Shown here piece after piece: positions 13,266-56,168 of a DNA stretch of 64,000 nt. Source of the stretch: Isoetes taiwanensis (Eukaryota > Streptophyta > Lycopodiopsida > Isoetales > Isoetaceae); the NCBI GenBank assembly GCA_021234155.1, contig JAJEKV010000398.1:173138-237137 (forward strand). The letters are read 5' to 3'. Within the stretch, counting starts at the first letter, position 1; every line of letters starts with the position of its first letter. Made by a program: the position numbers and the translations under genes. The notes under the pieces are model-generated. The model did not search any database. It worked only from the letters and a program-made list of their open reading frames with translations, and was not told the DNA's origin.

Positions 13266-13786
13266 TGTGACGTTCCATGTATTTATACGATATACTATAT
13301 ATACTATGACACTTCTCCAGTGTATAAGTGGACCCTTAGGGTCCAATAGGGGATGACTTGGGTTAACCTAAAAGGGTTTTTATTAGCTATGCTAAAATAT
13401 TTGTGAGTAAATAATGTAACTAGTCTAATTAGGTTATTAATTAGTAAATTGCTTATGTTATCTTGTACATGTATTACCATGTAGATGATGATGATGGATG
13501 GACCACCCTTCGTGGTGGTATATTATTTGAGCATGATTGTTGTGTGCTAACATGTATGTACGCTTTCGCTGTATGTATGCTAACATGTATGTACGCTTTC
13601 GCTGTATAGGATTCACATAGAGGACGTGGGACGAATGACACCTCTGTATTCCTCACCCGGACACTTGGCCATCCCAAGTGGTCCGAGTTAAACGAAGAGC
13701 CTTTCCATGGTGATGTAGTTGCAATGGGAGCGGGAATTCCCCATATTTGTACGATTGGAGGATCGTATAGATTCTAGGAGAGTCAC
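13266..13786 (+). repeat. 5' LTR of chromovirus 1 (internally deleted)
   Basis: The first ~180 bp match 37172-37350. The remainder, from about 13446, has no counterpart in the 3' LTR. Its end region (GATGGACCACCCTTCG...) resembles the end of the chromovirus 2 LTR near 44420. It therefore seems to lack ~0.6-0.7 kb of the middle LTR that the 3' copy keeps. It contains an exact 33-bp tandem duplication at 13545-13610. Confidence 0.75.
13545..13610. repeat. 33-bp tandem duplication in the LTR
   Basis: Two units beginning TGCTAACATGTATGTACGC, starting at 13545 and 13578. Confidence 0.85.
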
Positions 13787-13788
13787 AA

Positions 13789-13800
13789 TGGTATCAGAAC
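13789..13800 (+). other. Primer-binding site of chromovirus 1
   Basis: TGGTATCAGAAC follows the 5' LTR end (AGAGTCACA) within a few bases, as expected for initiator tRNA-Met priming. Confidence 0.8.
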
Positions 13801-14854: not shown

Positions 14855-15118
14855 TTTTTCCCGACACGCACTCGTATAAAAATGCATACTTCTGATGTAT
14901 AATTTTTTTTTGTAAAAAAAAAAAAAATTGAAATTTTTTTTGAATCTCAAAAAAAGTGACGGTTATTTTTTGTCCCATCTCGACGACTTGCGCTCTTCGT
15001 CTCGCCCGTCCGCCATGGCCGCCGGAGAAGAGCTCGCTTCCCCATAACCTCACGCTTGGTCGCTGCCACTGCCGCCCCACCAGCGCCTCCTTTCGAACCA
15101 TTTCCTACACCAATGAAC

Positions 15119-16333
15119 ATGGCTCGTATCCGAGGTTACATTAGTTACTGTAACCTCAGTGTTCATCAGGTATTTGCTAAGCTCGGCGAGCAGCTTGCCA
15201 GCGACTCTGACAAGGTTGAGCTTCTTTTAGTCACACTCGTTCAACGGTTTGTCGCCGGACATAGGGTCCCTTACCCTATTTTCCATCCGTCTGAGCACTT
15301 GTTACTGAAACTTAATGCCTTAGGGCAACCCTACACATTAGTAGAGCAGCCCAATCAAGTCCTGATGCTGGTCAAGTTTTACCCTCCCTCGTGTGTGGAG
15401 GTTGCTGAAGACGAGGCCATCCAGGCAGAGGCCGAAGGGATTATGGGGCTCGCCCAACGAGATGACACACGGGAGACGGAGAAGGGAGACCCGAAGGCCC
15501 GGGATAGCTAGTACGTCTATCTGGGAGACGGACAAGCCGTCATAGAGGGGAATTCATTTAATCTTCCCCCCACCACTACAATGAGGCAACCCAAAGTTTT
15601 ATTTGGGCAACGTCCATCATACCTCGCGGTGGACCACCTGATATCCATCGAGCTAGATATACAGACCAGGCCTGACAGGTAACCAGACAAAGCTACTGAG
15701 GAGAGTAAATGCCCGTCGCCTTGCTGAAATGGAAGGGCGTATGGCGGCTGCACACGCCGCGCAACAGGTGGCAGAACGGGTGGAGCAGCAATGACAGGCT
15801 GAGGAGCTTGCCAAGCAAAATGAGGATCAGCACCAGACTCAACAAAACCAAGAGCGAAACCCGCAGCTGGATCCCAACCAGACTGAAACCCATGTTGTTA
15901 AACAGGGGCGAAAGTCCATGGTCCATAAGTCGGGGAGCGCTTATAAGGAGAAGCTCAAGACAGTTGGGGGCATCGGGAAAGCCACGAGCTCTGCCCGTTG
16001 GCAGGACCGCATGGATGCCGTCCGACCTCGCCTGGTGTCAGGGGATAAGACCCTGCCAAAGAAGCCAACAGAGCGATCCGAAAGTATCAGAAGACAACCG
16101 AGCTTCTGCTATAGAAACTTCCCTTTCAGGGCCTGGTGCGAGAGATAGCGCAAGAGTATCGGACCGATCTTCGGTTCCAAACCTTTGCTATGCCCGCCCT
16201 ACAGGAGGCCGTCGAGGATGACCTGGTAGCTCTTTTTGGGGATGCTAACCTCTGTGCTATCCATGCCAAGAGGATTACCATCATGACAAAAGATTTGGCT
16301 CTCGCCAGGAGAATTCAGGGCGACCATAATTAG
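15119..16333 (+). pseudogene. Chromovirus 1 upstream ORF ending in a histone H3 fold
   Basis: The likely start is ATGGCTCG at 15119, the same start context as in chromovirus 2. The N-terminal part (MARIRGY onward) runs to an in-frame TAG at 15509 and continues in frame to 15681. It contains QRFVAGHRVPYPIFHPSEHL and belongs to no family I recognise. A Gln/Glu-rich helical segment follows (around 15700-15900, LAEMEGRMAAAHAAQQVAER), interrupted by one stop, then a basic Ser/Lys-rich stretch (GRKSMVHKSGSAYKEKLK). After a frameshift near 16045 comes a histone H3 fold to the stop at 16331. No capsid or zinc-knuckle motif is seen, and the ORF sits between primer site and gag like the extra upstream ORFs of some plant gypsy elements. 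Function is unknown; nuclear or chromatin targeting is inference. Confidence 0.75.
16049..16333 (+). pseudogene. Histone H3-like domain
   Basis: Reading from 16049 the frame gives IRKYQKTTELL, one TAG stop (16112), then [49 protein letters not shown] and KDLALARRI, ending with the ORF stop a few residues later. These match, in order and spacing, the alphaN, alpha1, loop 1, alpha2 and alpha3 segments of histone H3. Loop 1 has canonical H3 length, not the longer CENH3 loop. The C-terminus coincides with that of histone H3 (ARRI.G). Charged changes in alpha2 (AVEDD) and loss of the canonical 'P' before KD suggest divergence. Homology to H3 is, in my view, beyond doubt; whether the protein ever entered nucleosomes cannot be told. 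Confidence 0.92.
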
Positions 16334-19323: not shown

Positions 19324-19328
19324 GGAAC

Positions 19329-23898: not shown

Positions 23899-24655
23899 AG
23901 TGATCGCTTTGTTGTTCATGAAGGAGGTCTTCGCCTTCATGGGATGCCCCGTATCATTATATCGGACTATGATCCTATGTTTGTTAGTGCATTTTGGAAG
24001 GATTTATTTTGGAAGCCTACCTGAAGGGTGATAATGAAATGAGCACGCACCATGTCATTCAGGTGCGTGGGATTTGACCTTCCAAAGGATTTAACTTAAA
24101 ATCCTTTCAACATAACATTCAGCGAACCATTCAAACTAAGCTTGCCATGAGCACAGCTTACCACCCGCAGACGGATGGCCAAACAGAGCGTATCAATCGC
24201 ATAATCGAAGATATGCTACCTAATTATGTCTGGAACAAGCAGTCCCAATGGGCAGATTATATCCATTTGGTGGAGCTTGCGTATAACAGTACTAAACAGG
24301 AGTCTTCAAGAATCTCTCCTTACTCCATCAACTATGGCTATCAATGCCTTACTCCATACACGTGGCATAATCCGATTTTCAAGGTGGAAGTGTCTCAACA
24401 ATTGCTTACAGATATGCAGGTCCTAGTCGAGGAAGTTCGAGGATATTTCTTAGCTGCCAGAGCCCGGCAAGAGAGCCTTGTCGACCGGCATCGGAAACCA
24501 TGGGAATTTCAAGTTGGTAAGTCTGTATGGCTAAAGATCAAGGTCAAGCAGGCCAAACTTAAAATTGGCAATTGCAAAGCTTGCACCTAGATGGGGGGAC
24601 CCTTTGAGATAACCGAGAGGATAGGTTCTCAAGCCTACAAGTTGAATCTACCCGC
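23899..24655 (+). pseudogene. Chromovirus 1 integrase (core and start of C-terminal domain)
   Basis: The frame from about 23903 reads HGMPRIIISDYDPMFVSAFW, giving the second catalytic Asp. STAYHPQTDGQTERINRIIE follows, giving the catalytic Glu, then NYGYQCLTPYTW and a GPFEITERIGSQAYKL segment typical of gypsy integrase C-termini. About 110 bp of unrelated, hairpin-forming DNA (about 24011-24120) interrupts the core between the two motifs. There is a stop at 24588. The open frame ends exactly at 24655, where the Tat-like element inserted. The next residues are found at 36437. The N-terminal zinc domain was not found. Confidence 0.9.
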
Positions 24656-25251
24656 TGTTTGGGGTCTGGGTTCGGGAACTCCTGCAAGACAGCCCTCTGT
24701 GAGGACCCGTGGGTCTAACAGGAGAATCCGGGGGCTATGTCACGCGGGATTTGCAAGAAAAGAACAAGAAAAAGAGAACAGAACAGAAAGAGAACAATGT
24801 AATCACAATAATGAGAAAAGCTTCCTTGATATCAATGGAAATACATGAGCTCTCGTAATCGAGAGAAAATGTATGAGACAAGACTCAAAACTCATCTAAA
24901 ACTCATGTGCTAGCTCTACTCATATATATAGTACAATGGCATTTTGGCCCAATATAGACACTCGACTGATTTCGTGCCGACTCTCGAAGGAGGCCTAATT
25001 TGTAGGAATGCCGGGCGGTGCCTCTTGAAGTGCTCGAATCACGCCGACGCCGACCTTGGCGGTGGGCGCCGTCATTACTTATCGAAGCGCCGCCTCTTGT
25101 TGACGCCAGCGTGGTCTTTGTCTAGCGTGGGTTCCTTTGGTCTTCTGGTGAGCCTTTGACGACCAATTCGTGCACCGATTGTGGACTCTTGGACTTGACT
25201 TGGTCCGTCGTATGCATGAATAGTCCTGTACCAGGAGGCACAGGACTAACA
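24656..25251 (-). repeat. 3' LTR of the Tat-like element
   Basis: Plus strand begins TGTTTGGGGTCTGGG and ends GGACTAACA. It matches 35868-36431 with small indels and substitutions. Differences from the other LTR show that the element is not brand new. Confidence 0.92.
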
Positions 25252-28102: not shown

Positions 28103-28112
28103 GCCTGAACAC

Positions 28113-29168: not shown

Positions 29169-29432
29169 CCGTTGATGATGCCAGGTGGCGACAGATGTAA
29201 GGGAGTCGTTTGAGATGTAAAATTTTGGCTAAGTTCCCAAGTAGTAAAGGGAAAAACATTGAACGGCGGAGATGAATCGTAAGAGAATGATCAAATGTGA
29301 CAGCTGTCGAAAGGACGCACATTAATGATATGCGGCGGGAAAGAAGATTCCCCTTATAGAAAGAGCCTTGCATTGCAACCACGTTAGCAAATGTGCTGAT
29401 TGGTCCATGTCGACAGAGGGGTCCTCAGTTGG

Positions 29433-29440
29433 CTATATAA
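29433..29440 (+). promoter_or_regulatory. TATA box in antisense orientation
   Basis: CTATATAA lies ~30 bp upstream of an ATG at 29471 on the strand opposite to the retrotransposon genes. Spacing is typical of a plant core promoter. Confidence 0.4.
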
Positions 29441-29470
29441 GACGAACAGCGGTGGAAGCTGAGACACCCG

Positions 29471-29735
29471 ATGGCGTCTAACGTCTGCTGCTGGTTTGCA
29501 CGACAAGTGCACTATGCCGTCTAACTGCCTGGAGTGGATTACATGCAAGATGAACTGCTTGGACCTCTGGCGGTGCCACAACCGTGGCATTGCCATGGAC
29601 GGGTGGTGTGCCGGGATGGCTGAGCATCCCGATCCTCATACCAACGGGATGGAGGTGATTCTGCACCTGCGCTGGGATCCTGAACATAACTGGTACCACA
29701 TCCTGCGTATCACCTCTGCTCCAAACCCGGAGTAG
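29471..29735 (+). pseudogene. Antisense small ORF between pol and the extra ORF
   Basis: An ATG at 29471 opens MASNVCCW, but this frame stops after 17 codons. A +1 frame from about 29496 stays open to a TAG at 29733 and is Cys/Trp/His-rich: MPSNCLEWITCKMNCLDLW, then HLRWDPEHNWYHILRI. The two may once have been one ~85-residue frame. A TATA box sits upstream and a TATAAT/AATATAAA-type AT-rich region downstream (29836-29850). Antisense genes between pol and 3' LTR are known in some Tat-lineage elements such as Grande and Retand. Resemblance here is positional only. Confidence 0.35.
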
Positions 29736-29858
29736 AGGGGTTTTCTCATAGGGCTCTTAGCCCGTTTTTGTAATTAGGGCTCTGCCCATAGCGGAAATAG
29801 ATGGGCTCTGCTCACATTTTGTAAAAATTTCACCTCTATAATATAAATATGCCACTGT

Positions 29859-32598: not shown

Positions 32599-33905
32599 CT
32601 AAGCAAAAATGTGTTTGAATTTCTTGAACAGCGTTACTGCGCGTGCTTTATAGGTGGACGGCAGATGAGCAGCTAAGCGGACTGGTTGATTGTTTCCAAT
32701 GTCCACGATTTCCACGGCTGGAGTTTGGATGTGAGGAACAACCTCCGTGTCCTGAACCTTATGAGCAGGAGGCTGAAACATGACGGGAGGAGTAGCATTA
32801 TGCGTGGTGAAGAATAGAGGCTGCTGAGCGTCATCCAGCAAAGGTTGCTCCATGACGGTATGAACATCTACTGTCTCAGAAGAAGAAGGTGCTTCAGAAA
32901 AATGATCAAGACGTTGAATGCGATTGCAAGAGGCCAGGTATGGGTCCAAAAGAGCTGCCACAGCCTGGTCTTGATCGAGCGTCATGTCACCCCAAGGATC
33001 AGCATACTCAGGGTAAGATGAGAGAGGGAGACCTGCAGGAGGAGTTTGAACACTATAAATATTTTGGGCTTCTTCCGAGTCAGTGTCAGAGATGGAAGGT
33101 TCCGCATTCTCAACAGAAATTAATTGGCCAGTTTCTAGATCCATTGTGGCATTGAGATGGCCATCAGTGATAACAAGTTGGTCCGTGGCCCAGTAATGAA
33201 TACTTTTTGCCTGTCGGAGAAAAGGTCGTCCAACGAGCATTTCATAATCACCAGGATCCTCTCCTGCTTTCCAAACGCCAAACCCCAAAGGGAATTTGAG
33301 ATCACCAATGCTGATATGTAGAAGAGGAGTGATGCCTTGAGGTCGCGTGATATGGCCATTGGCCAACTTGATGTCATAAGGGGCACGATACAATTGTTTG
33401 ATGCCCAATTGCTTCCGGAGTTTATCAGTAATGAGATTGACGGCACTACCACCATCAATTTGAACATGATTGACTTTCTGATTGCCCACCGTGGCATGCA
33501 CCGTGGGTGTTGAAGTTGCAACAGCTCCAACCAGAACCGTGGGAAGAGGTAACTGATCTTTGAGAGCCGGACAGAGTTTCAAAATTGTGGCGAGGCTCAA
33601 AGGAATCTTGATCTTTGCGAGCTCTTCCTGAAGTTCCAAAGGAACATGTGAAAAAGGGTCCGCAGGGTCCAGTGGAGCTGGAGTCTGTGGTAAAGAAGCG
33701 GAGACTTCTTTGAGCAGCTCGACTTCAGCAGCAATATTGGGATACGTATGGGAGCGGCCACTAGTGGATGTGGATGGCTCCGCTTGATGCTGCTGAGCGC
33801 GAGTAGTGGCGTTAACATTTGCCAAGGTTCTGCCTTCGGCAGCCTGCATAAGTTTCAAAATGCTTTGTCTGACTTTAGGCATAACGTGAGACATAAGTTT
33901 GTCCA
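32599..33905 (-). pseudogene. Tat-like protease region
   Basis: Open frame containing KVRQSILKLMQAAEGRTLAN, then an aspartic protease: VQIDGGSAVNLIT (DGGSAVN in place of DSGAxxN), followed by GFGVWKAGEDPGDYEMLVGR and PFLRQAKSIHY. Residue DG is unusual at the active site, although a small residue after Asp is tolerated in some plant families. A long linker with acidic and proline-rich segments leads to RT. It is separated from gag by a frameshift in a poly-T run near 33905. Confidence 0.85.
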
Positions 33906-35832
33906 GATTTTTTTTCCTCGTCATGAGGGATGGTTTCCACTGCAAAATCAGGGTGCGTGTCATGAGCAATGATGGTCAAAGGGCGGGAAGCTCGAGCGTG
34001 ACGCACAACGAGACCAACCCAATTGGACTGCTGGACAGGAGGATTGAGTGCCTGATAAATCTCTTCTTGAGCTTGTTGGTCTATAGGATTGGATGTAGAG
34101 GCAGCCTGCTGAGGTCGCTGTTGTTGAGGTGCCCGTGGAGGCTTCCGCAAAACAGGACGGGGGCCTTGTTTGCCATTTGCGACCCACAGTTGGTAGGCCG
34201 TGAGACGTACAGAAGCAGGTTGATTGGAACCTGGAAGTTGGACCTGAACTTGAGGAAGTTGAGGACACGCCGTGGTGGTGTGACCCCATTCTTGACAATG
34301 ATAACATTGAGCTTTTGAAGGATCAAAGGGAGGACGGTTGCCTTGTCCCCGTGGTTGCTGAGGTTGCTGAGGCTGTTGATATTGCTGCTGTTGTTGGATG
34401 GGGTATTGCTGAGGCGGATAAGACTGTTGGGGTTGAGGCGTGGTCTAGACTTGAAAGACCATCTTTTGCCGAAAGGGTGTAGGATGAGAACGAGTGCATT
34501 CTTCCGTGGCATGATTGCACATATTGCAGCGTTTACAATGAGGAGGTCCATTTGAGGAATTGCATTCATTTGCCAGATGACCTTGATATTTACAAATAGT
34601 ACACCAGATGTGAGCAGTTGTGGATTTGCTTGTTGAGGCTGAACAAAGTTCTGAGGAACCATGACGGGCGGCATAAAAGGGAGTTCCGTGAGAGCAACTC
34701 CGCGGGAAGAAACATTGACCGAGTGATTGACCAGTTCAATGGCCTGCTCCAAAGACTTGGGACGCAGGTATTCTGTCATAAGTCTAATAGCAGGAGGAAG
34801 GCCCTGCAGAAACCAGACGAGGATCTGGCTTTGCATGGGGTACTCCTGAAGTTTGCTGACGAGAATGTGAAGACGGTCCGCAAAATCCCTGGCGGACTCC
34901 GTGGGCTCTTGTTGAAGATCATTGAGTTGCTTGAGGAGTAACTGGTCATCGTCCGTGGTGCCATAATGGGACAGAAAGGCAGTTTTCATTTCTTGCCAAC
35001 TCTGTTTCCAGTGGCTTTTATTGGCCATTAACCACTGATGAGGGGCGCCTCGTAGCGTGGTCGAAAAAATATGGAATTTAAGTTGTGGCTGCGCATGACC
35101 ATTCAGAATGGCCAAGGCTTCAAATTCTTCCATGTGGGCTTGAGCACTCTGATCCAAAGGTTTGCCCTTAGTGTTGCCGAAAGTGGGATAAGTCAGCTTC
35201 AAATTATGAGTGGGCGATGTAGGCTGAACTGGCGCGTAGATAGGTGGATTCGATGGAGGATATGCAGAAGCATAAAGAGGTGGAACAGTCTGAGACTGAG
35301 AACCAGGGGGTGGAACAGAAAAAACATGTGGTCCAGCAAAAGCAGCATCTGGTGGAGAAGGACCTTGAGAGCCATCCTCTTGTGGCTTGAGATCAGTGGT
35401 TTTATAAACGGGAAGTGCATGGTGGAAAGATGGAGAAGACTGGAAGTCGTGAACGTGGGTAGGGCCAAAAGAGACATGATGGTAGCCCATCCCACCCGGA
35501 GGGGAAGAAGGTTGTGATGGAAGAGGGGTATGCCCGGAAGGGATATTGATATAGGTACTCTCAGGAGTCTGGAAATAGTGAGGCGTGGGCTGAACAGGGG
35601 TATGCTGTGGAGATTGGGGCTGAGAACAATGCCTACACACAGGGGGAGACCCTGGTCGAGAATGAACACGAGGGGTAGGAGGGGCCGATTGAGCTCGGGA
35701 GCGGATACGACCACCCTCAATGTCATAGGCAGAATCATACATGTCCCTGACAGCCTCGCGTCGTTGATGGCGCTCCAGTCGAGCCGCCGTTTGGCAAAGA
35801 AGTTCTTCAGGGGTGAAACCTCTAGTCGACAT
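33875..35832 (-). pseudogene. Tat-like gag with three zinc knuckles
   Basis: Starts at MSTRGFTPEELL (ATG at 35832), ~35 bp inside the primer site. A long Pro/Gln/Ser-rich N-terminal region is followed by a retrotransposon capsid core: EEFEALAILNGHAQPQLKFH, LRGAPHQWLMANKSHWKQSW and QEPTESARDFADRLHILVSK. After a frameshift near 34620 come CTICKYQGHLANEC, CKRCNMCNHATEEC and CYHCQEWGHTTTAC, three CX2CX4HX4C knuckles that bind the genomic RNA. One in-frame TAG lies near 34443. A second shift near 33905 leads to protease. Gag forms the cytoplasmic virus-like particle. Confidence 0.9.
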
Positions 35833-35848
35833 GAGGAGAAAGAAAGCA

Positions 35849-35866
35849 GACCCGGCAGCGGCGACA
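35849..35866 (-). other. Primer-binding site of the Tat-like element
   Basis: Beside the 5' LTR the minus strand reads TGTCGCCGCTGCCGGGTC, close to the tRNA-Asp-type site TGGCGCCGTTGCCGGGG used by plant Athila/Tat elements. The third base is T instead of G. Confidence 0.65.
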
Positions 35867-35867
35867 G

Positions 35868-36431
35868 TGTTTGGGGTCTGGGTTCGGGAACTCCTGCAAG
35901 ACAGCCCTCTGTGAGGACCCGTGGGTCTAACAGGGTCTAACAGGATTTGCAAGAAAAGAACAAGAAAAAGAGAACAGAACAGAAAGAGAACAATGTAATC
36001 ACAATAATGAGAAAAGCTTCCTTGATATCAATGGAAATACATGAGCTCTCGTAATTGAGAGAAAACAGAAGTGAGACAAGACTCAAAACTCATCTAAAAA
36101 CTCATATATATAGTACAATGGCCTTTGGCCCAATATAGACACTCTGACTGATTTCGGTTCCGACTCCTGGAAGGAGGCCTAATTTGCAGGAATGCTGGCG
36201 GTGCCTCTTGAAGTGCCTGAAATCACGCTGACGCTGACGCGGGCGGTGACGGGCCGTCACTTGTCAGAGCGCCGCCTCTTGTTGATGCCAGGCGTGGTCT
36301 TTGTCTGCGTGGTCTGCTTGGTCTTCGGCTGAGCCTTTGACGACTGACCCGTGCCTGGTTGTGGACTCTTGGACTTGACTTGGTCCGTCGTATGCATGAA
36401 TAGTCCTGTACCAGGAGGCACAGGACTAACA
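35868..36431 (-). repeat. 5' LTR of the Tat-like element
   Basis: Pairs with 24656-25251. It begins TGTTTGGGGTC on the plus strand and ends GGACTAACA, followed by the target copy CCCGC. It has a short duplication of GGGTCTAACA near 35926. Confidence 0.92.
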
Positions 36432-36780
36432 CCCGCGCATTTGAAGGTCCATAAGGTCTTTCATGTGAGCCTTCTCAAGAAGCATAACCCTGATTCAGAC
36501 GAGATCCTTGACACGTCGACACTTCTGGAGATGACAGAAGATCAATTATAGATTGTGCCTCGTGCATATAAGCAAACCCACAGAACTCAAATCTTGTAGT
36601 ATTTAATTAAGTGGAAACACTTGCCGACAGAGGACGCAACCTGGATTCTTAAAGCGGATTTGCACAAGGCTAACCCAGACTTTATGCAAGAATGCCAGGG
36701 CCGAACCATTCACGATGCGATCGACTCCAACCCTAACGGTAAGCATTGCATTATGGATCCGACAGGGATCATATAAGAGT
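36432..36780 (+). pseudogene. Chromovirus 1 integrase end and chromodomain
   Basis: Resumes the integrase exactly after the target duplication: LKVHKVFHVSLLKKHNPD, the usual gypsy 'hVSxLK' end. A linker with LLEMTEDQ follows, then IVPRAYKQTHRTQIL and YLIKWKHLPTEDATW. The last string is a chromodomain signature (YLVKWxxxPxxxATWE). Two TAG codons (about 36548 and about 36596) interrupt the frame. Chromodomains of gypsy integrases recognise modified histone H3 or heterochromatin and steer integration. Aromatic-cage residues are only partly visible. Confidence 0.85.
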
Positions 36781-37171: not shown

Positions 37172-37985
37172 TGTGATGTTCCATGTATTTATACGATATA
37201 TGTATACATACTATGACATGTTATCAGCGTATAAGTTGACCCTTAGGGGTCAATAGGGGATGACTTAGGTTAATCTAAAAGGGTTTTTATAGCTACGCTA
37301 AAATATTAGTGAGTAAATAACCTAATTAGGCTAATTAGATTATTAATTAGAAAAAATCAGCCAACTACAGAGTGCCACCTAGCCCAAACGATTGGCCAGG
37401 AGGAACTTGCTAAGTTTGAAGGGCAAATTGGGCCCCTACCCCAATTCTGCCCCAAATCGATTTGGGGAGAGTTGGAGGAAGGAGGAGCTACCAGTTGTTG
37501 TAGCCAGACCTGAAGAATGGAAGCCTTTCGAGACAATGGCTCTGGCGAAGAAACCGATTAGTCCCTAGATAGTCTATGCTTCAGCTAACCCTTCTCTGAT
37601 TAGATGGAATGGTTAATTTCTCTTTTATGAGTCACTAAGATGATGATGAATACTTTGCTTATGATTGTGTTCTCCCTTTCTGTTTCTCCTGTGTGTCTGG
37701 GGTTAAGGGAAGGTAGAGACCTGAAAGCTTCCTAGAAGTAGAGATGTGTCTAGCTAGAACCCTTAAGACCCAGTAAATGCCTGTGCACAAGAGCCCACCT
37801 GGCTGTGGATGCTCTGATATGATTCAGCACCAAACAATGGGTATGATCGTGAAACGGGGGTGGGGTCTTGCCTAGCGTGGCTACAGGACCCTACAGTGTG
37901 CAAGGCTTATAGTCGGTCACTAAGTGTGGCCGAGTATGAGTCTGATACTCTCTGAATCCCAGGTTGAGTGCCTATATGGACATCT
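37172..37985 (+). repeat. 3' LTR of chromovirus 1, truncated
   Basis: Starts TGTGATGTTCCATG. Its first ~180 bp match the 5' LTR. The middle (GGTAGAGACC, ATGATTCAGCAC, GTGGCTACAGGACCC, GGTCACT) is homologous to the chromovirus 2 LTR near 43720-43935. It ends abruptly near 37985 before the terminal region kept by the 5' LTR, so no TSD can be checked. Confidence 0.75.
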
Positions 37986-43027: not shown

Positions 43028-44652
43028 TGTGAAAATTATCATCCAGGGGAATATACGCTATAGATACGTATATTCCTGGACCCGTCACCATACAAGTCTA
43101 CCTAGGTAGCCTTGTATGCCTTAGAAAGTGGCAAGGGGTGCACGTCTAAGTTAATTATTTAACTTAGATAACCTTAGGATAAGACCCATTTCCACATGGC
43201 CTTATCCTATTGGGCAACCGCCCACGGCCTCATCCTAGTGGTGTGCGTGGCATCCCATGTGCACCTATATTAACTCTAACCCTAACCCTAGACCTCTTTT
43301 TCCTTGACCTAGCACCTGAACCCTCATCTACGCGCCCGAAACCCCATTTCGAGCATCGTTCGTCATAGCCTAGCCTGGAGCAGCAGCCCCTAGACGGTGT
43401 GTATGATCGTAGAGGGAGCAAGTCTTCGAGCCACGTCAAGGAGCATGGAGACGCCAGGGATGGGAGGAAACGCTTCTGGAGGAGGTAGGTTGAGTAGAGT
43501 CCATGTTAGTTCATCCGGGAGTTAGCACTCGGATGGGTTAGTATTTCAGAGTTAGAGTAGAGCCACCCTAGATCCTTTGTTGAACATCTTGAACCCTAAT
43601 CAAGGAACCCTAAGCATTAGTTAGATATGTATAATTAGGGTAAGATGTTCATATGATATTGTTCATGATGATGATGTGATGATGGTTGATCAAGTTTGTT
43701 CCTCTTGTGTTGGGAAGGGGGTAGAGACCTAGGGCCATATAGTATGCTCCTAAGTAGATCCCTTAGTTCCTATTAGAAGGCGGCTTTGCACATAGGAACT
43801 CACCGGGCTATGGAGGCTATGATGTGACTCAGCACTACACAATGGGGCTAGAGGCAAGATGGAGGGAGGATCCCTGCCGAGCAGGGGCTACAGGGGATCC
43901 CATAGTGGGCTAGGCTTATGGTCTGGCCACTTCGTGTGGGCCTGCATGGGTCCCACACCTCCCGGGCGAAGGTGTTGCCCCGCCTCAAGAGTTGCAAGTA
44001 TCGGCTTGGCTCTTGTTTTGGGGGTTCTTGCCATTTCACAGTGCGGTGTCGCCACGATTCTCTAGCCACCCGTGGAGCCTCTAGACCCGGGAAGGGGAGA
44101 TGCAACCCTTCCTTCCCTCGGCCCGGACCGAGGGAGATGCAACCTGGAGTAGTCCCGGTGGGTGATGCCATGGGATTGCGTGATCCGGAAGGTTAGAGTC
44201 ATGTAGTCCGATCTAGCCCATCCGCAAAGCATGCACGGGGAGGGGGCGGATGGGTGGTCAACCCTAGCCATTGTCTTGTGCAGCCCCGCCATTGCCATGA
44301 CTCGGTGCTTCTATCTTGAGGCCCAGTCGGTCTGGTCACACCCTCCACGAAGTCCGAGCACAGGTAGGAGCTCTCTTTGTTTTTGGTTTGTGATTATCAT
44401 CCTTGCACTTGTGGATATGTGATGGACTACCCTTCGAGGTAGTATTTGTATTGTTGATGCTAGTTCTCGACATGTTTATCGCTCACAAGTTATAGGGAGC
44501 CCATAGGGAAGGGCGCTAAGACACCTTCAGGTCCCTCCCCACTAGGGTCACCTTTAAAGTGTGTGGTAGACTTAAGGGCCCGTAATGGCTGTTGAGCCGG
44601 ACGGGATTTTCGCCGAGTGTACACGGGCCGATGTTTAGCGGTGAGCGCCACA
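43028..44652 (+). repeat. 5' LTR of chromovirus 2
   Basis: Direct repeat of 54512-56168. Shared stretches include AAGTCTACCTAGGTAGCCTT, GGAGCAAGTCTTCGAGCCAC and GTTCATGATGATGATGTGAT. The first ~40 bp differ from the 3' LTR. It holds a short telomere-like CTAACCCTAACCCTAG at about 43276. Confidence 0.88.
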
Positions 44653-44653
44653 A

Positions 44654-44666
44654 TGGTATCGTGAGC
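44654..44666 (+). other. Primer-binding site of chromovirus 2
   Basis: TGGTATCGTGAGC follows the LTR end (GCGCCACAA). It resembles the initiator tRNA-Met site with mismatches after TGGTATC. Confidence 0.65.
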
Positions 44667-45228: not shown

Positions 45229-46363
45229 ATGGCTCGAACTAAACAAACAAAGAAGGAAGTATAACGAAAGCGACCCACCCTTCCCTCAATGGCGCAAGCG
45301 GCTAGGACGCCACGCCAAGAAGGTTCCCGAAAGCACCTTTGACCTGCTTTGAGATGAGGAGCTTCCTCCTCCAGCGAGCAGCGCCGACACCTTCCACGAT
45401 GCCAAGAGGACGACCGAAAGCCCCAAGCTCTCCTCCGGGGTACCGGTGAGAACCTGGGGCGAATCCCGGGCCACTTTGGCCCCTTGTCTGGCACTCGAGG
45501 TAGAAGAGTGTTGAGGAGTTGTGGACGAAGGCAAAGAAGCAGCAGCCAAAGACAAACTCAAGAGGCGGGCCCTTCAAAGACCAAAGAAGAAGGGCAAGGA
45601 GAAGGTTGCAAGAGTGGTCTGAGGAGAAGGCCGCTAGGAAGAAGAGGGAGCGCGAGCGAGCCGAGGCAAAGCAGTGGAGAGAAGGATCTAAGAGAAGAAA
45701 CGAACCGCCTCCGGACCGCCTGCCATAGAAGAAGAGCCTCGCCAAGAGGAGGAGGTGGGAGGGAAGGAGGAGATGGAGGGGAGGGGAGGAGCAAGCAGGG
45801 CCGGGGGTCTTCCAACCCCGACGCCAGACCACCTACCCCTGCGGCTTGAGCCACCCAAGGTGGTCAAAAGCGTATGTGGAGAACGGAATTCACCGCCCGC
45901 CGTGATCGTGAAATTACGCGCGAAGATGAAGACGCATAAAGAGTACCCGGCCGCCGACAAGGTACAACGACGGGTAACCCCCGTCCGAATGTGCGAGATC
46001 CGCCGAGGCGGCAGAAGAAAAAATCACCGGGGCCACCCCACCTAGACCGAAAACCCAAAGGGTTCACCACAGGCCAAATAGTGTGCACGCCTCGGGTGTT
46101 TAGGGAGATCAAGCACTTCCAAATGTGCACAAATCTCCTCATAAAGGGAAGGCGCCCTTTGAGCCTCCTTGAGGAAATCATGCAGAGTTCGGACTGATTA
46201 TAGGGGTTACCCCTCTAATGACCCGGCCCCGCAAGAGGGGCCGCTGGTAGCAGCTGGTGCAGCTCTTTGAGGAAGGGAATCCTGTGCCATCCATGCTAAG
46301 AGGGTCACGCCATGCCAAAAAGACCTACACTTAGCATGGAGGATTAGCAGGAGGGGGCCCTAG
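45229..46363 (+). pseudogene. Chromovirus 2 upstream ORF: H3 tail, basic linker, H3 fold
   Basis: ATG at 45229, after a pyrimidine-rich leader, begins MARTKQTKKEV, whose first seven residues are exactly the start of histone H3. A TAA follows at codon 12. Beyond it, shifting frames give a Lys/Arg/Glu-rich region (KDKLKRRALQRPKKKGKEK; KRERERAEAKQWREGSKRR). Then at 46057-46197 comes GFTTGQIV and VFREIKHFQMCTNLLIKG, matching the RYRPGTVALREIRKYQ..TELLI segment of H3. After another shift are LVQLFEEGN and CAIHAKRVT with KDLHLA.RI, matching H3 alpha2-alpha3. The stop at 46361 lies where H3 would end. HFQ..TNLLI is CENH3-flavoured, but AKRVT..(M)PKDLHLA is canonical-H3-like. At least three frameshifts and two stops make this copy dead. 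Confidence 0.85.
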
Positions 46364-49300: not shown

Positions 49301-49368
49301 CCCAAGACAGTTTCTAGCTCAGAAAGTGAGTCAGGACACTCCACGTAAGAGCCAGACAAGGAAGGCAG
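46364..49368. other. Spacer between the H3-type ORF and gag in chromovirus 2
   Basis: About 3 kb. A diverged duplication with GGTGAGA, TCTGCGTT and GATTCACC lies around 46590-46880. A plus-strand frame at 47180-47382 (SINSLLKASFLVFDHLFDLH) and several open frames at 47650-48500 rich in Arg/Ser look like decayed coding DNA, perhaps the counterpart of the 22772-23116 fragment of chromovirus 1. Nothing here can be named. Confidence 0.4.
47050..47057 (+). promoter_or_regulatory. TATA-like box inside chromovirus 2
   Basis: TATAAAAG followed by GGGCC, in a context like a plant core promoter, ~130 bp upstream of the 47180-47382 open frame. Function is speculative. Confidence 0.25.
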
Positions 49369-52300
49369 ATGACTATCGAAGAAGGTTGGTGCAATGAGCA
49401 ATGTGGAAGACTAGGAAGTTGGGTCATTTCTCGTGAAAGGACAAAGTCGTCGCATGGAGGCGGAAGCATGGCTTGGACTAAAATGGAGGAATTGGGCAAC
49501 TCTTATAGCATGAAGGACAAGGATATAGGGAAAGTTGCTACGCCAAACTTGATAGGAGCAGCTAGAATCTGGTGGAAAGGTTATGCCAAGTCTAACAAGC
49601 TCAAAAGAAACGATTCTGCATTCAAGACCTTGAAAGAAAGCTTTCATAAGCACTATGTGCCAAGATAGCACACTAGCAAAAGTGATCCGCCAGATTCTAT
49701 AGGTTGAACCGGTACATTGTCAAGAGCAAAGCATACAAGAGGAATTTATGCGCGCTCCTGCTCCATGTTCCCTGAGTATCAAAAGGCAAGCGGTTGATAC
49801 CTACATTGAAGGGTTGAGCAAAGAATATCAAGAGGCTTGTTAGGGCAATCAACCCAAGGTCGATTGCGAGGCCGAAGACAAAGCTATAAGTTTGGAGGAA
49901 GCACCATCAACTCCAGCGGAGAGAAGTCGGCCTACCGGGGCAAAGCTCGTGGCGCACCGTAGTAAGCAATCGCCAGCCTACGCCCATCGTGAGGCCAGCC
50001 AGCCAGGAAGAGCCTGTGGTAAGACCTTTGGGGACCGTAGTTTAATGCATCAGAGGCAAAGGTGCTAAAGCCGCATCCTAGACAGCTTGACGAAAAGAGA
50101 AGAGACAGTGTGTATCGAGAAGAAGCTATGCTTCAGTGCTTCCCCAAAAAAAATCAACACATGATTGCCCATTCGTCATGCAAACGCCTTTGGCAGAGCT
50201 TATGGATTGGGATTCACCAATGTATGATGAGGACGACGATCAGCACGAGGCCCGTGACTTCATAGATGGTGAGTGCCATATATGTGCAAACATTGAGTCG
50301 TGCGGATATTGAGGATCGGGCCTACAAGCCATCGCTGGCCGATGGGATCATAGATAGTAAAACCATATGTAGTCCCTTATAGACATTAATGTGTGTTCTC
50401 ATAACTTTGCCTCCTAGGTTGGCTGCCCTAATGAAGAACAAGGTATTGAAGTCTAAGCCAAGGCCGGTTGCTGCAAAAACGGCGCCATTCGACACACTAA
50501 GGGGAGGAGGATCACGTTCGACATAGACCTTAGTGGAAGTAAGTGGCCGATGGGAGCGAGGTCATGGAAATTAGAAGGTATGACCTTATAGTGGGCATGG
50601 AATTCTTGAAGCCAGCCAAAGCCATGATTGATTCAGGACTCAAGAACGAAGTCGCCATGACTAACACGGACGGCACCAAATTCATAGTGAAAGGTAAGAA
50701 GGCAGCTCCTTCTATGCTGTATTTCCTTGAAACACCTAAGGAAAAGTATAGAAAGAAATAAGGTGGATTACATTTTGAGGTTAGAGGCAATTGAGCCCAA
50801 GAAGCGTAATGGGCGACCAAAAGGGGAATCGATTGCCCAAGCCAGTAGCAAGGCTCATCTCAGAATTTAAGGATGTATTCCGGATGAAATCCGGCCAGCT
50901 ACCACCTTATAGGGGTGTGGAATGTGAGATCACATTAGCTCCAGATGCTAAGCCTATCATAAAGGCACCTTTACGGGATGAGCACCCTGCATTGATAGAG
51001 CTCAAGAAGTAGCTCCGTGAATTGTTTGAGCTTGGGTTTATTAGAGCAAGTGTGTTCTTTTGGAGCACCTATACTCTTTTCGTGAAGAAGAAAGATGGGA
51101 GCTTAAGAATGTGCATAGATTATCGCCACCAACAAGCGTACAGACCATTAAGAATAAGTATGCATTGCCAAGGGCCGATGATTTGATGGACCAGCTCCAA
51201 GGAGCAAGGGTATTCTCAAGGTCGGTACCATCGATAAGAATAAAGGAAGAGGATATCCATAAGACCGCCTTAGAAGCCAGTATGGTCATTTTGAGTTCAC
51301 AAGAATGCCCTTTGGATTGTCGAACAGCTCCAAAGAACCTTTTATGCGCCTCATGAACGACGCCTTCGGGATTTTTTCTAGATGAGTTTGTCATTGTCTT
51401 CTTTTCGACATTCTAGTCTCTGACAAGTCCATTGAAGATCATGATCGGCATTTGAGGAAAGTGTTGGAGAAGCTTCGACGCCATCGCCAGTATGGCAAGC
51501 TCTCCAAATGCCACTTTTGTTACCAAAAGAGTGGAGTATTTGGGCCATGTAATATCTCGCTGAAGGGATTTCCACCCACTCTCAAAGATTGAAGCAAGAG
51601 TCGATTGGCCACCAAGGAATGTAGCGAATAAGAAGCTTTCTCGGGTTGGCTTAGATATTCTGAGAAAAGTTCGTGGAAGGACTTTGCTAAGTGGGCCCCT
51701 TTGACGGACCTCACTAAGAGTGTTAAGGTGAAAGATTGAGAGCACATTGGTTGGAGAAAGTCCAAGCTTCCTTTGAGAAGCTCAAGGAGGCCTTAACTCC
51801 AAAGCCGGCTTGTCCTTCCGTGATCCAAAGTAAAGATAAGCTTTGGCTACCGGATGCAAGCAAGATAGCAACAGGCGCCTTTTGATGCAAGAAGAAAGGG
51901 TAGTCGCCTCATTTACTCAAGAAGATGAACGACGCCGAAAGCAACGCTACCCAACCCATGATCGGGAGCTCCTAGCCATTGTCGGGCATTAAGGATTTGG
52001 AGGCATTATTTGTGGGAAGGAGGAGTTTCTTAGTTAGATACCGATCACCGTGAGCCTCCAAGTCTTTTCACCCAACCACTCCTCAACCTAAGGCAAAGGA
52101 GGTGGATGGAACTGAGGAGTATGATTTTGATATAGTATATAAGCCCGCAAGCTTAATGTGGTGGCAGATGCTCTCCAGAGACCGTTTGAGACAAGAACGC
52201 ATTGTAATGCGATTTCCACTCTTCGAAAGTGAGTTTGGTAAGAAGATTGAGGAGACCCCGCCATTGGATGGAGATTTCAAGGAAGTATGGGAAAGCCTTT

Positions 52301-53656
52301 CTAGGGAGGCTAGAATGATAAGGAACGGAGGCCTTCAAGCATTATAAGAAGGAAGGCAACCCGTTGTATCATAAACATAAGTTGTGTGTGCCCGAATCAT
52401 CGTGGGTAAGGAAGCTAATTCTTCATGACACACACAAACAGCCCAATTCTTGAGCGCAGGGGTTTATGAAGACCTACTTCAAGATTCGAAGTAGTTATTT
52501 CGGGCCGTGGATGAAGAAGAAACAGATAGCCAAGTATATTCAGGAATGCCAGTTGTCACAGACCAAAAGAAAGCAACTTCGATCCGGTGCCTTAGAGCCA
52601 TTGGGGTGCCAAATGCTAAGTGGGGAGGTCATAAGTATGGATTTTATCACCGGCTCCCTAGAACTCTTCGAGGCAAGGATGCATTGATGGTTGTCGAGAC
52701 AAGTTATCTAAGATGGCACATTTGTGCCTTGCGACACCACGACACCGCCAAGCTATTTGTAAAGGAGATTTTAGACTCCATGGCATGCCTCGAGATAATT
52801 TCAGATAGGGATTCCAAATTTATGAGTGCCTTTTGGCAAGACCTCTTTAGCACGACATTCGAATTTTAAGCCTCCATGAGCAACGCATATCATCCCCAAA
52901 CAGGATGGTCGACGGAGAGGACTTAATCGCGATCATCGAGGATATGCTTAGAAGCTTTGTGTGGAATAAGCGGTCAAGTGGGATGAGTACATCCACTTGG
53001 TGGAGTTTGCCCACAAGTGCTGCCAAGGCAGAGTCTTCCCAGATGTCTCCTTTCATGGTAAATTACGGTACCAGTGCCTAACCCTGATACTTGGCACAAT
53101 CTCGTCAAAGGTAGAAGTATCCCAAACGGATGCTGGAGATATGCAGCAGCCTGGTGGAAGAAGCAAGGGGTTACCTCCCTAGCAGGCAAGAAGTCGGCAA
53201 AAGAGTGTAGCCATGCTGCTAATGTGACCGTAAGAGATTTCAAGGTAGGCGTATAGCTGCAGGTTGAAGATCAAGGTTAAGCAAGCTAAGCTTCTGGATT
53301 GGGAGTTGTAAGAAGCTTGCCCCTAGGTGGACTGGTCTGCTCAAGATTTTGGAGAGAGTGGGCTCCCAAGCCTACAAGTTGGATCTCCCGCCCATCTTAA
53401 GGTCTACAAGGTTTTTCAATGTAAGTTTATTAAAAGGCACAATCCTAACCCCAGGAGGTTTCGATACTCCAACCTTTTGTTGGAAATGACTAAGAGCAAG
53501 TGGAAATTGTGCCCGAAAGGTTTCTTTTTGATAAGTCATTCAAGAAGACGAGGGAGGTCTCGGGCCTTCCAATATTTGGTCAAGTGGAAGCACTGCCCGT
53601 GGAAGACGAACCGGGTATTGAAGGTGATTTGGAGAAGCAATAACCCGAGTTTATGA
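49369..53656 (+). pseudogene. Chromovirus 2 gag-pol with chromodomain
   Basis: Gag: IGAARIWWKGYAKSNKLK and FKTLKESFHKHYVPR (49540-49668). Protease end: YDLIVGMEFLKPAKAMIDSG (about 50581-50640). [34 protein letters not shown] (about 51080-51130), and a catalytic box decayed to FLDE near 51380. RNase H pieces: LPDASKIATGAF and YDFDIVYKPASL. Integrase: a zinc region with ECQLSQTKRKQL (52540 on), SDRDSKFMSAFWQDLF (about 52803), and a YHPQTGWSTER match (52890 on). C-terminus: HLKVYKVFQCKFIKRHNP, then the chromodomain core RAFQYLVKWKHCPWK (53560-53605). Many indels remove any long frame. Domain order gag-PR-RT-RH-IN-CHD is that of chromoviruses. Confidence 0.88.
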
Positions 53657-54500
53657 AGGAGTTTGATGGGCGTAGTCGCTCCCATTTGGTCGACTCGACT
53701 CGGGCCAGAGGTTAGCTTTAGTATGCTTCTTAGTTAGTTTTAAGGCCGCTCATGTCTTCTAGTTAGTAGAGCACATGCTTTAATCTTGGAACGGTGGCTG
53801 TATGATGGATAAGCCTTTAAGGCGCTTCTAGGCCAACATGCACCAGAGGTGCCGCATGACCGAGGGGTCAGAGAGAGAGAAGGAAAGGCATGGTGCCGAT
53901 GATGGGGATATCGGCCTGATACCCCTAAGTGCCACGCACGTGGGGGTCCTACACCGGGCCATAGGGGGGTCATGGTGAAGGTTAAAGTGATCATGTGCTA
54001 TGATGGGATCGTGGAGACATTCCCCAGCTTAAAACCCTTGGGGCATGATGTACTCAGGGGTTTTCGCACCGTAAATCGCAAAGTACAAGGTAGCACTTGA
54101 TCATGGGCAATGATGGGATCATCTTAAATGGTCTTTAAGCTCAAATTCAAAGGGCCATGATCGAAAGTGCAAGGTATTGGTAAGGGGGTGGTCCCCAAAA
54201 CCACAATTTATTAATTAGACTAACGTGAATGTGCTCCATGTGCAGTGCAAAGTGAGAAGGAGCATCGAGGTGGGAGCATTCTAGAAGATGGGGAAAACCA
54301 TAATTTAGATTATGAACCTAATAACTCTTATAATAATGTTTTGAATTATTGTAAAGAAGCTATATAACCTTATTACAAAAGGCTATATAATTTTGTATAA
54401 GTAGTTGATTGTTGAATTTAAGTATATATGCTTTTGTGTTGTTTTGGGGATCTAGTAGGGTCATTATCTTAGCTGCAATGCCGAGACAAAGATTGTCCTA
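53657..54500. other. 3' untranslated region of chromovirus 2
   Basis: No coding region seen between the chromodomain stop and the polypurine tract. Confidence 0.6.
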
Positions 54501-54511
54501 AGGGGGGAGAA
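54501..54511 (+). other. Polypurine tract of chromovirus 2
   Basis: AGGGGGGAGAA directly before the LTR start TGTGACG. Confidence 0.88.
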
Positions 54512-56168
54512 TGTGACGTCCTGTGAACATACGCCATAGATAATGATATATTCCTCGATCTGCCACCATACAAGTCTACCTAGGTAGCCTTGTATGCCTT
54601 AGAAAGTGGCAGTGCACATCTAAGTTAATTATTTAACTTAGATAACCTTTAGGATAAGACCCATTTCCATTATGGCCTTATCCTATTGGGCAACCGCCAC
54701 ACCTACCATCCTAGTGGTGCCAATGCGCGGGCATCCCATGTGGACCCACACCTATATTAACTCTAACCCCTAACCTAGACCTTTTTCCTTGGACTCAGCA
54801 CCCTCAATCCCTCATCTACGCCTCAAACCCATTTCCCGAGCATCGCTCGGCCATAGCCTAGCTCGGAGCAAGAGCCCCCTCGATTCGCGTGTAAGGATCG
54901 GGTAGAGGGAGCAAGTCTTCGAGCCACATCAAGGAGCATGGAGACTGTGGATGGAGGGAAGCGCCTGGAGGAGGTAGGTTGAGTGGGAGTCCATGTTAGT
55001 TCATCCGGGAGTTAGCACTCCGGATGGGTTAGTATTTCGTAGTTAGAGTAGAGCCACCCTAGATCCTTTTGTTGAACATCTTGAACCCTAATCAAGGAAC
55101 CCTAATCAGTTAGTTAGATATGTATAATTAGGGTAAGATATTCATATGATATTGTTCATGATGATGATGTGATGATGGTTGATCAAGTTTGTTCCTCTTG
55201 TGTTGGGAAGGGGGTAGAGACCTAGGGCCATATGTAGTATGCTCCTAGTGTAGATCCCTTAGTTCCTATTAGTTGCGGCTCAGGTGCATAGGAACCCATG
55301 TCGGGCTATGGGGCTATGATGTGACTCAAGACTACACAACAGGGCTAGAGGCAAGATGGAGGGATCCTCAGCCCGAGGCGGGGACTACGGGGATCCCATA
55401 GTGGGCTAGGGCTTATGGTCGGTCACTTAGGTATGGGCCGGGCATGGGTCCGACACCTCCCAGGCGAAGGTGTTGCCCCTGCCTCTCAAGAGTTGCAAGT
55501 GTCGGCTTGGCTCTTGTTTGGGGGGGTTCAAATGGGTTCTGAAGTCGTGTGTATACGATTCTCTAGCCGCCCGTGGAGCCTCTAGACCCGGGAAGGGGAG
55601 ATGCAACCCTTCCTACCTCGGCGGACCGAGGGAGATGCAACTCCGGAGTAGTCCCGATGGGTGATGCCATGGGATTGCGTATCGGAAGGTTAGAGTCATA
55701 CCGAGTCCGATCTAGCCCCGACCGCAAAGTATGCACTGTGAGGGGCGGATGGAGTGGTCAACCCTAGCCATTAGCCCGAGTGCCGACCCTCGCCATTGCC
55801 ATGACTCCGGCCCCGGCTCTATCTTGAGGGCCCTGGCCCTACGGTCCACCCTCCTTACGAAGTCCGAGCACAAGGTAGGAGCTCTCTTTGTTTTCACCAG
55901 TTTGTGATTATCATCCTTGCACTTGTGGATATATGTGATGGACTACCCCGAGGTAGTATTTTGTATTATTTGATGCTAGTTCTCGACATGTTTATCGCTC
56001 ATATAGAAGCCCATAGGAAGGTCACAAGAAGACACCAGAACCTCTCCCCTACACTAGGTCACCTAAAGCGCGGGTAGACGCATGGGCATGTAATGGGATT
56101 GTTGAGCTGACGGGATTTCCTCAAGGGAGGTACTACGGGGGTACCAGATGTTTAGTGTGGAGCGTCCA
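54512..56168 (+). repeat. 3' LTR of chromovirus 2
   Basis: Begins TGTGACGTCC, like the LTR start of chromovirus 1 (TGTGACGTTCC). It matches the 5' LTR with numerous small indels, consistent with an old insertion, and ends near GCGTCCA. Confidence 0.88.

What the first reader, a model, noticed from the sequence alone, without database searches (positions are those of the whole stretch)
45229..46363. Second chromovirus has an ORF starting with the exact H3 tail MARTKQT and ending in an H3 fold
In chromovirus 2 the ORF begins ATGGCTCG and codes MARTKQT, identical to the start of histone H3. About 280 codons later come VFREIKHFQ..TNLLI, LVQLF and CAIHAKRVT with KDLHLA, in the same order as H3. 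Tail and core are separated by a Lys/Arg/Glu-rich insert absent from histones. A tail that mimics H3 residues 1-6 would be the natural ligand of H3K4 writers and readers, so this looks like histone mimicry by a mobile element.
Basis: partly seen in the sequence, partly recalled or inferred. Interest (0 to 1): 0.95.

Follow-up and report, generated by a model that had tools for sequence, protein, structure and literature searches.

The report
Retrotransposons that encode histone H3
A lineage of jumping genes in a plant genome carries its own long version of histone H3, the protein that packages DNA; most copies read of the closest family keep the exact H3 tip that chromatin enzymes read, which suggests the elements use a home-made histone to deal with host chromatin.

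Summary
The sequence is real, but this copy is dead. MARTKQT lies at 45229, with a stop at codon 12; a frameshifted H3 core lies at 46102-46345 (score 129, shuffles 27). It sits between PBS and gag of an LTR chromovirus (LTRs 85% identical). A second element in the window has an H3 core at 16052-16324, also behind its PBS.

The host genome decides. The 1.1-kb module matches 39 other scored places (75-81% DNA identity). Of 12 starts read, 10 encode MARTKQT, 9 MARTKQTARK. The sister family, to which the second window element belongs, has open frames (404-420 aa in 13 of 20 stretches) ending in H3, inside LTR elements. There the H3 core has dN/dS 0.03 and the rest 0.12, so it is selected, not a passenger; but its start is MA[NIH]TKS. 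MARTKQT starts number 2,727 in the genome, only 19 of canonical MARTKQTARKS type; whether the rest precede H3 cores was not shown.

Verdict: retrotransposon-encoded H3 is well supported; use of the tail as a host-reader mimic is plausible but untested. Closest precedent: H3 captured by hAT DNA transposons in fungi.

The parts
43049..44609 (+). Element B 5' LTR (aligned part; the LTR probably runs ~43037-44653)
   Evidence: blastn self match 43049-44609 vs 54525-56118, 84.5%; 84.8% over 1,544 columns, K 0.171
44654..44660 (+). Element B primer-binding-site remnant TGGTATC directly after CACAA; element A has TGGTATCAGAAC after CACAA
   Evidence: 15 of 20 sister stretches have TGGTATCAGAGCC
45229..45249 (+). 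MARTKQT start, identical to the H3 N-terminus; a frame shift and then a stop at 45262-45264 end this copy's frame
   Evidence: 10 of 12 other copies read keep it
45250..46101 (+). GC-rich insert between tail and core (basic/acidic, coiled-coil-like), broken into several frames
   Evidence: lies within the match of the 21 other copies that match from query position 1
46102..46345 (+). H3 core remnant (alpha-N, alpha1, alpha2, CAIHAKRVT, KDLHLA), frameshifted
   Evidence: Pfam Histone 20.2 bits for 46271-46360
49330..49665 (+). Element B gag remnant
   Evidence: Retrotrans_gag E 3.3e-4, 21.3 bits, below cut-off 24.1
51257..51544 (+). Element B reverse-transcriptase remnant
   Evidence: tblastn 4.3e-5 to the RT of the other Ty3 element
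53268..53650 (+). Element B integrase C-terminus (SH3_Tf2-1) and chromodomain-like YLVKWKH..
   Evidence: SH3_Tf2-1 E 3.6e-13 for 53268-53486; the chromodomain was recognised by eye
54512..56118 (+). Element B 3' LTR, preceded by polypurine tract AAGGGGGGAGAA (54500-54511)
13266..13788 (+). Element A 5' LTR, followed by PBS TGGTATCAGAAC (13789-13800)
   Evidence: its first 183 bases 87% to 37172-37354
15095..16051 (+). Element A ORF1 remnant: N-terminal part and coiled coil of the gamma family (VPYPIFHPSEHLLLKLNALGQPYTLVEQP...)
   Evidence: searches compared by eye
16052..16324 (+). Element A H3 core, 63/91 identical to H3, one in-frame stop
   Evidence: score 304 vs shuffles 26.5; Pfam Histone 83.2 bits for 16115-16330; groups with gamma (support 94/97), 77% identical to L044
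17837..18126 (+). Element A ORF2 remnant, cut off by a LINE (~18.8-22.6 kb)
   Evidence: searches compared by eye with ORF2
23905..24655 (+). Element A integrase remnant; element A is cut here by a minus-strand Ty3 element (24656-36432) and goes on at 36433
   Evidence: similar to element B 52746-53391
37172..37354 (+). Element A 3' LTR start (aligned part), after PPT AAGGGGGGAGAA

Best explanation
The feature is a dead copy of an extra 5' gene (ORF1) of a chromovirus-type Ty3 LTR retrotransposon lineage. ORF1 encodes a histone H3 with a long insert: an H3 tip at the N-terminus (MARTKQTARK in this subfamily), roughly 280-320 residues of basic/acidic and coiled-coil sequence, then a complete H3 histone-fold core ending like H3 (..LARRIRGE..). 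SHOWN: position between PBS and gag, multi-copy amplification with the element, long open frames in the sister family, strong purifying selection on the sister family's core, conservation of the tip among the copies read of this subfamily. INFERRED: the core pairs with host H4 and is deposited as a retroelement-specific H3 variant on element DNA or on target chromatin; the insert recruits element proteins (for example the integrase, whose chromodomain-like end is of the type that reads H3 tails) or host factors; and where the true H3 1-9 sequence is kept, host K4/K9 writers and readers treat it as H3, so the element can shape its own chromatin state or integration site.
For: Two elements of one lineage in the window both carry it, with shared PPT (AAGGGGGGAGAA), LTR start (TGTGACG), CACAA|TGGTATC junction and integrase similarity. 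Host genome: the module at 40 scored places of 1,220 candidates (window included), 22 of them matching from position 1. 12 of the other 21 starts were read: 10 MARTKQT, 9 MARTKQTARK; the A1, R2 and K4 codons are unchanged in 12 of 12, and intact copies vary only silently at T3, Q5 and A7. Sister family gamma: the H3 core ends the frame in 15 of 15 loci translated (L017-L031) and was found in an open frame in 20 of 20 ten-kb stretches chosen for long frames or matches; PBS upstream in 15 of 20; gag, protease, RT and RNase H behind it by Pfam in the one copy searched, and gag-pol-like frames in the 5 examined. dN/dS over 13 copies with an open frame and a recognised start, of 15 tried: core 0.03, rest 0.12. 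2,727 MARTKQT starts genome-wide, control 0, against 19 canonical-type MARTKQTARKS (AGY form 0); 40 spellings among the 100 listed; among sites with the other six residues intact, position 4 is Lys in 2,727 of 2,775 (9 control hits).
Against: This copy is broken. The gamma family, with the best evidence of selection, does not keep MARTKQT (MA[NIH]TKS), so exact tip mimicry is not essential to the lineage. Of 7 further MARTKQT sites sampled, all differ after residue 7 and 2 stop within 16 codons; it was not shown that such sites are followed by an H3 core or lie in LTR elements. No expression, protein or binding data. The dN/dS used only copies with open frames, which lowers the value. B-type copies were read only at their starts, so whether any is open throughout is unknown.
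Confidence: 0.6

Rival explanations
1. Passenger capture: a host H3 transcript was picked up once and carried along without function, as in transduplication.
For: H3 capture by hAT transposons with many dead copies is known in fungi (PMC6710886: abstract and passages). Both window copies are broken.
Against: dN/dS 0.03 in the core and 0.12 in the rest across 13 gamma copies at dS 0.45-0.75; silent-only codon variation in the tip of B-type copies without indels there; window A and B cores differ at pS 0.77 but pN 0.35 over 78 codons.
Confidence: 0.07
2. Soluble decoy: the protein is not deposited in nucleosomes but titrates H3 chaperones or H3K4/K9 enzymes away from element chromatin (anti-silencing mimicry).
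For: The long insert between tip and core is unlike any deposited H3 known to me (recalled); the tip keeps R2, T3, K4 and, in 9 of 12 B-type copies, K9.
Against: A decoy needs only the tail; a core with dN/dS 0.03 points to true H3-H4 pairing. Gamma lacks the exact tip.
Confidence: 0.2
3. Packaging factor: the histone core compacts element DNA or RNA inside the particle or pre-integration complex rather than acting on host chromatin.
For: Lies directly 5' of ORF2, ORF3 and gag in the same orientation; viral histones with packaging roles are known (recalled).
Against: Retention of the H3 tip at so many sites is not needed for packaging; no H4-like partner was recognised in the element (ORF2 and ORF3 of the one copy searched have no Pfam match).
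Confidence: 0.13
4. A host H3 or CENH3 gene or processed pseudogene that happens to lie in the element by nested insertion.
For: HFQ..TNLLI resembles plant CENH3 (recalled).
Against: The same module lies at the same place in both window elements and recurs genome-wide. The core fits canonical H3 better than Arabidopsis CENH3: 129 vs 85 for B, 304 vs 171 for A.
Confidence: 0.02

Closest known systems
Histone H3 captured by hAT DNA transposons in fungi (Pyrenophora tritici-repentis; Pseudocercospora fijiensis and relatives; PMC6710886, abstract and passages read)
   Same: A mobile element carries and amplifies an intron-less histone H3 sequence to many copies.
   Different: There: a DNA transposon, plain H3, copies either RIP-inactivated or simply extra H3. 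Here: an LTR retrotransposon, H3 with a long insert and its own C-terminal variations, under purifying selection inside the element (shown for the gamma family).
Chromoviruses (Ty3/Metaviridae with integrase chromodomain)
   Same: LTRs, initiator-Met-type PBS, gag-protease-RT-RNase H-integrase, chromodomain-like end.
   Different: Three extra ORFs before gag in the gamma family, the first a histone H3.
Canonical plant H3 and CENH3
   Same: Tip MARTKQTARK and the full histone-fold core; like CENH3 an altered, longer N-terminal part.
   Different: Encoded by repeats; an insert of about 280-320 residues after the tip; core closer to canonical H3 than to Arabidopsis CENH3.
Long H3-containing proteins in databases (P0024-P0142; P0003 gag+H3 in a pseudoscorpion)
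   Same: Proteins longer than H3 that contain H3.
   Different: Judged by names and precomputed domains only, most look like tandem or fused histone gene models; they were not inspected one by one.

Membership tests
LTR retrotransposon, Ty3 type | Paired LTRs with PBS and PPT at the inner edges | tested here: met
   Elements A and B; PBS in 15 of 20 gamma stretches
LTR retrotransposon, Ty3 type | gag, protease, RT, RNase H, then integrase | tested here: met
   Pfam on one gamma copy: Retrotrans_gag, RVP_2, RVT_1, RT_RNaseH above cut-off, zinc knuckle below it; integrase part only as remnants in A and B: mutual similarity and SH3_Tf2-1 in B
Chromovirus | Chromodomain at the end of integrase | tested here: inconclusive
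   YLIKWKHLPTEDATW in A and YLVKWKHCP in B recognised by eye; no profile search of that piece
Histone H3 | Pfam Histone above the curated cut-off | tested here: met
   139.1 bits in gamma L039, 83.2 in window A; window B piece only 20.2 bits, below 26.4
Histone H3 | Closest family is H3, not another histone | tested here: met
   Window A core: PDB histone H3 chains, best E 3.3e-35
Histone H3 | N-terminal tip ARTKQTARK | tested here: inconclusive
   9 of 12 B-type copies have it; gamma has MA[NIH]TKS, so met in one subfamily and not met in the other
CENH3 | Core nearer to CENH3 than to canonical H3 | tested here: not met
   Scores 129 vs 85 (B) and 304 vs 171 (A) against H3 and Arabidopsis CENH3; in the tree gamma (with window A) and alpha lie on the side of canonical H3, beta beside the two CENH3 rows, but that split has only 85/85 support
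H3-carrying hAT transposon | hAT transposase and terminal inverted repeats around H3 | tested here: not met
   The surrounding element has LTRs, PBS and gag-RT; no separate hAT search was made
Functional H3 variant | Pairs with H4 and is deposited in nucleosomes | not testable with these tools
   Needs protein work

The most novel reading that the evidence does not exclude
A whole lineage of plant retrotransposons builds its own H3 variant and uses it as a chromatin tool: a selfish histone whose true H3 1-9 tip is written and read by host enzymes, while the element's own integrase chromodomain may read the marks, so that the element makes its own landing or expression chromatin. In this genome more sites encode the H3 tip MARTKQT outside canonical-type H3 genes (about 2,700) than inside them (19).
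Probability: 0.35. Interest if true: 0.97.

Novelty: categorically new. Interest (0 to 1): 0.92.

Why it matters
No retrotransposon that encodes a selected histone turned up in the literature searches. If the product enters nucleosomes, a selfish element supplies a core chromatin component in very high copy number, which bears on how transposons escape silencing, how they choose sites, and on histone-variant evolution. It can be tested directly: open ORF1 frames exist in the genome, the tip peptide can be synthesised, and H3 1-9 antibodies used on this plant may partly read element protein (inference).

Tried and rejected

Considered and rejected: intron instead of insert (GC-rich, and open through in gamma copies); CENH3 origin; window copies as members of alpha or beta: shared diagnostic residues only 1 of 16 and 2 of 20 for A, 2 of 15 and 4 of 18 for B, which withdrew my own first idea noted.

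Not obtained: a Pfam Histone search of the genome; genome-wide counts of MARTKQTARK, of the CAIHAKR core and of any residue at Q5.

Full report
WHAT IS IN THE WINDOW. The tip MARTKQT is at 45229, unique in the window's six frames. The frame then reads KKEV and stops (TAA, 45262-45264). The H3 core lies at 46102-46345 in pieces of three frames. A frameshift-aware local alignment scores 129 to H3, with 42 of 78 residues identical; 60 shuffles of the same DNA give 27.2 +- 3.6 (largest 40), the reversed protein 24. The intact part 46271-46360 alone reaches only 20.2 bits in Pfam Histone, below the 26.4 cut-off.

SETTING. Two LTRs, 43.05-44.61 and 54.53-56.12 kb by blastn, are 84.8% identical over 1,544 columns, K = 0.171. 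Behind the 5' LTR stands CACAA|TGGTATC; before the 3' LTR AAGGGGGGAGAA|TGTGACG. Gag (49330-49665, below Pfam's cut-off), RT (51257-51544) and integrase SH3 (53268-53486) remnants lie on the same strand, and a chromodomain-like YLVKWKH follows (by eye). The H3-like stretch sits about 575 bases behind the PBS remnant, before gag.

A SECOND ELEMENT. A better core lies at 16052-16324: 63 of 91 residues identical to H3, one stop, score 304, 83.2 bits in Pfam Histone for 16115-16330, best PDB match histone H3 at E 3.3e-35. It belongs to element A, which shares LTR start, PPT, PBS junction and integrase similarity with element B (67% DNA identity in 24137-24655 vs 52867-53391), has its PBS at 13789, and is interrupted by a LINE and by a minus-strand Ty3 element. 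Both elements therefore carry H3 behind the PBS. Between the two cores 77% of synonymous and 35% of nonsynonymous sites differ over 78 codons, the mark of past constraint, although two separate captures from host H3 would look alike on that measure.

PUBLIC PROTEINS. A search with the X-joined read-through of copy A gave 23 hits, among them unnamed ENA proteins with an H3-like tip, a long insert and an H3 core. An insert-only profile found 1,692 protein clusters at E <= 0.01; the best 120 are listed, all from ENA contigs without a name. Of these 120, 58 have the core motif [LC]CAIH[AG][KR]R, and 26 of the 58 begin MARTKQT, 6 MAKTKQT, 5 MVKTKQT, 5 MVRTKQT, 7 a near variant, 9 something else. 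I call the two groups alpha (32 with a core) and beta (36 with a core, by a looser pattern). In beta the core is more uniform than the insert (mean majority fraction 0.94 vs 0.78 over 24 sequences); in alpha the two are alike (0.946 vs 0.949 over 32), so alpha gives no such sign of constraint. Whether alpha and beta lie in LTR elements is unknown, because their contigs could not be fetched, and neither window copy groups clearly with them.

THE HOST GENOME. The window lies in a 1,658,258,908-base assembly of 1,110 contigs. The size divided by 11 is 150.75 Mb, against the average chromosome of 150.9 Mb given for Isoetes taiwanensis in PMC10541799 (passages); the chromosome number 11 is recalled, so the species is an inference. 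The PBS TGGTATCAGAGC is of plant initiator-Met type (recalled).

Query P0208 gave 105 scored matches of 9,921 candidates. The first 15 loci (L002-L016) are canonical host H3, 15 of 15. The next 15 (L017-L031) all end in an H3 core of another family, gamma; in 5 of these 15 the open frame reaches the start MA[N/I/H]TKSAPD. The protein runs MA[NIH]TKS..., FENNDRIPYPIYHFSEPFLIRLNLRQLSYTIVEQ, a coiled coil, and KPHRYRPGTVALREIRKFQKSTQLLIRKLPFQRL...LFGDANLCAIHAKRVTIMPKDLALARRIRGE[RHQ]P. Window element A is a decayed gamma: a similar N-terminal stretch (VPYPIFHPSEHLLLKLNALGQPYTLVEQP; by eye), and its core groups with gamma (support 94/97, 77% to L044, long branch).

I fetched 20 stretches of 9.9 kb, chosen for long open frames or long matches and so not at random. 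A core-bearing open frame was found in 20 of 20 (144-508 codons, stop to stop), with the MA[NIH]TKS start in 13 of 20; a PBS TGGTATCAGAGCC lies upstream in 15 of 20. In 5 stretches examined for further frames, an ORF2 (open over ~480-500 codons in 2, broken or shorter in 3), an ORF3 (~165 codons, open in 5) and gag-pol frames follow. Pfam on one copy gives Histone 139.1 bits, no match for ORF2 and ORF3, then gag, protease, RT and RNase H, with a zinc knuckle below cut-off. Over the 13 of 15 copies tried in which an open frame with a recognised start was found (404-420 aa), pooled dN/dS is 0.03 for the core (dS 0.45) and 0.12 for the rest (dS 0.75). Using open frames only lowers such values, but not to this level by itself (inference).

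THE MARTKQT FAMILY. Window 45229-46360 as a DNA query has 40 scored matches (window included) of 1,220 candidates, 75-81% identical; 22 match from position 1. Reading 12 of the 21 other starts: 10 MARTKQT, 9 of them MARTKQTARKY[HN]ERPTLSM, one with the same shift as the window (MARTKQTKKEV), and two with indels inside the tip. The A1, R2 and K4 codons are unchanged in 12 of 12; T3 uses ACT, ACC and ACA and Q5 uses CAA and CAG in intact copies, all silent. So the subfamily's tip is at least MARTKQTARK, with both K4 and K9 of H3. The rest of these copies was not read.

THE TIP GENOME-WIDE. MARTKQT occurs 2,727 times (1,333 + 1,394), the reversed-pattern control 0. Canonical-type MARTKQTARKS with TCN occurs 19 times and with AGY never; an H3 gene with an intron inside these codons would be missed. 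The 100 listed sites use 40 spellings and all six Arg codons. With any codon at position 4 the count is 2,775 (9 in the control), so Lys is kept in 98% of sites whose other six residues are intact. Seven sampled sites all differ after residue 7 (PQEIG, YRKPG, ARKRR, ARKPY, ARIHP, ARVPG, AQEAK), two with a stop within 16 codons. This suggests many families with the H3 tip, but I did not show that these sites have an H3 core or lie in elements.

MECHANISM. The core's constraint in gamma argues for genuine H3-H4 pairing. The tip's conservation in the B subfamily and its recurrence at thousands of sites argue that host H3-tail enzymes matter there; its change in gamma argues that the core is the common denominator. 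I commit to an element-encoded H3 variant deposited on chromatin (0.6 for the whole statement, about 0.95 for 'a retrotransposon encodes an H3'), with decoy and packaging roles as rivals.

LITERATURE. The nearest precedent is H3 transduplicated by hAT transposons in fungi (PMC6710886, abstract and passages). Searches for retrotransposons with H3 listed nothing of this kind by title and abstract (listings only; the passages of PMC12085086 shown speak of histone marks, not of an element-encoded histone). Subscription papers and bioRxiv are not in that library, so this is not proof of absence.

Noticed in passing
L039 4138-5634 and 3460-3957 (minus strand); similar frames in L032, L033, L036, L044: Two further ORFs of ~480-500 and ~165 codons between the H3 ORF and gag; those of L039 have no Pfam match. 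The family carries three extra genes.
   Followed up: partly
24656-36432: Minus-strand Ty3 element inside element A (LTRs 91% identical) with a long open pol frame and an extra ORF of 428 aa (25122-26408).
   Followed up: partly
18811-22640: LINE-like element (by eye: endonuclease- and RT-like ORFs) inside element A's ORF2/ORF3 region.
   Followed up: no
2817-11365: Another LTR pair (2817-3508 and 10653-11365, 92%) with an exact plant initiator-Met PBS on the minus strand at 10632.
   Followed up: no
P0003: A pseudoscorpion gene model joins retrotransposon gag with an H3 (H3F3C); possibly an independent H3 capture in an animal, or a gene-model fusion.
   Followed up: no
P0013 residues ~81-140: The beta-family insert holds a small helical domain predicted with pLDDT 85-93; its sequence is shared with the alpha family. 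Identity unknown.
   Followed up: partly
P0021, P0022: A third kind of long H3 protein, with MARTKLT or MARTKLM inside and an H3 core with a changed C-terminus, P0021 on a 371-kb contig.
   Followed up: no
alpha/beta proteins: Arg to His/Gln/Trp/Cys changes are frequent among copies (27 of 150 core changes in alpha, at least 24 of 253 in beta), as expected from decay of methylated CpG.
   Followed up: partly
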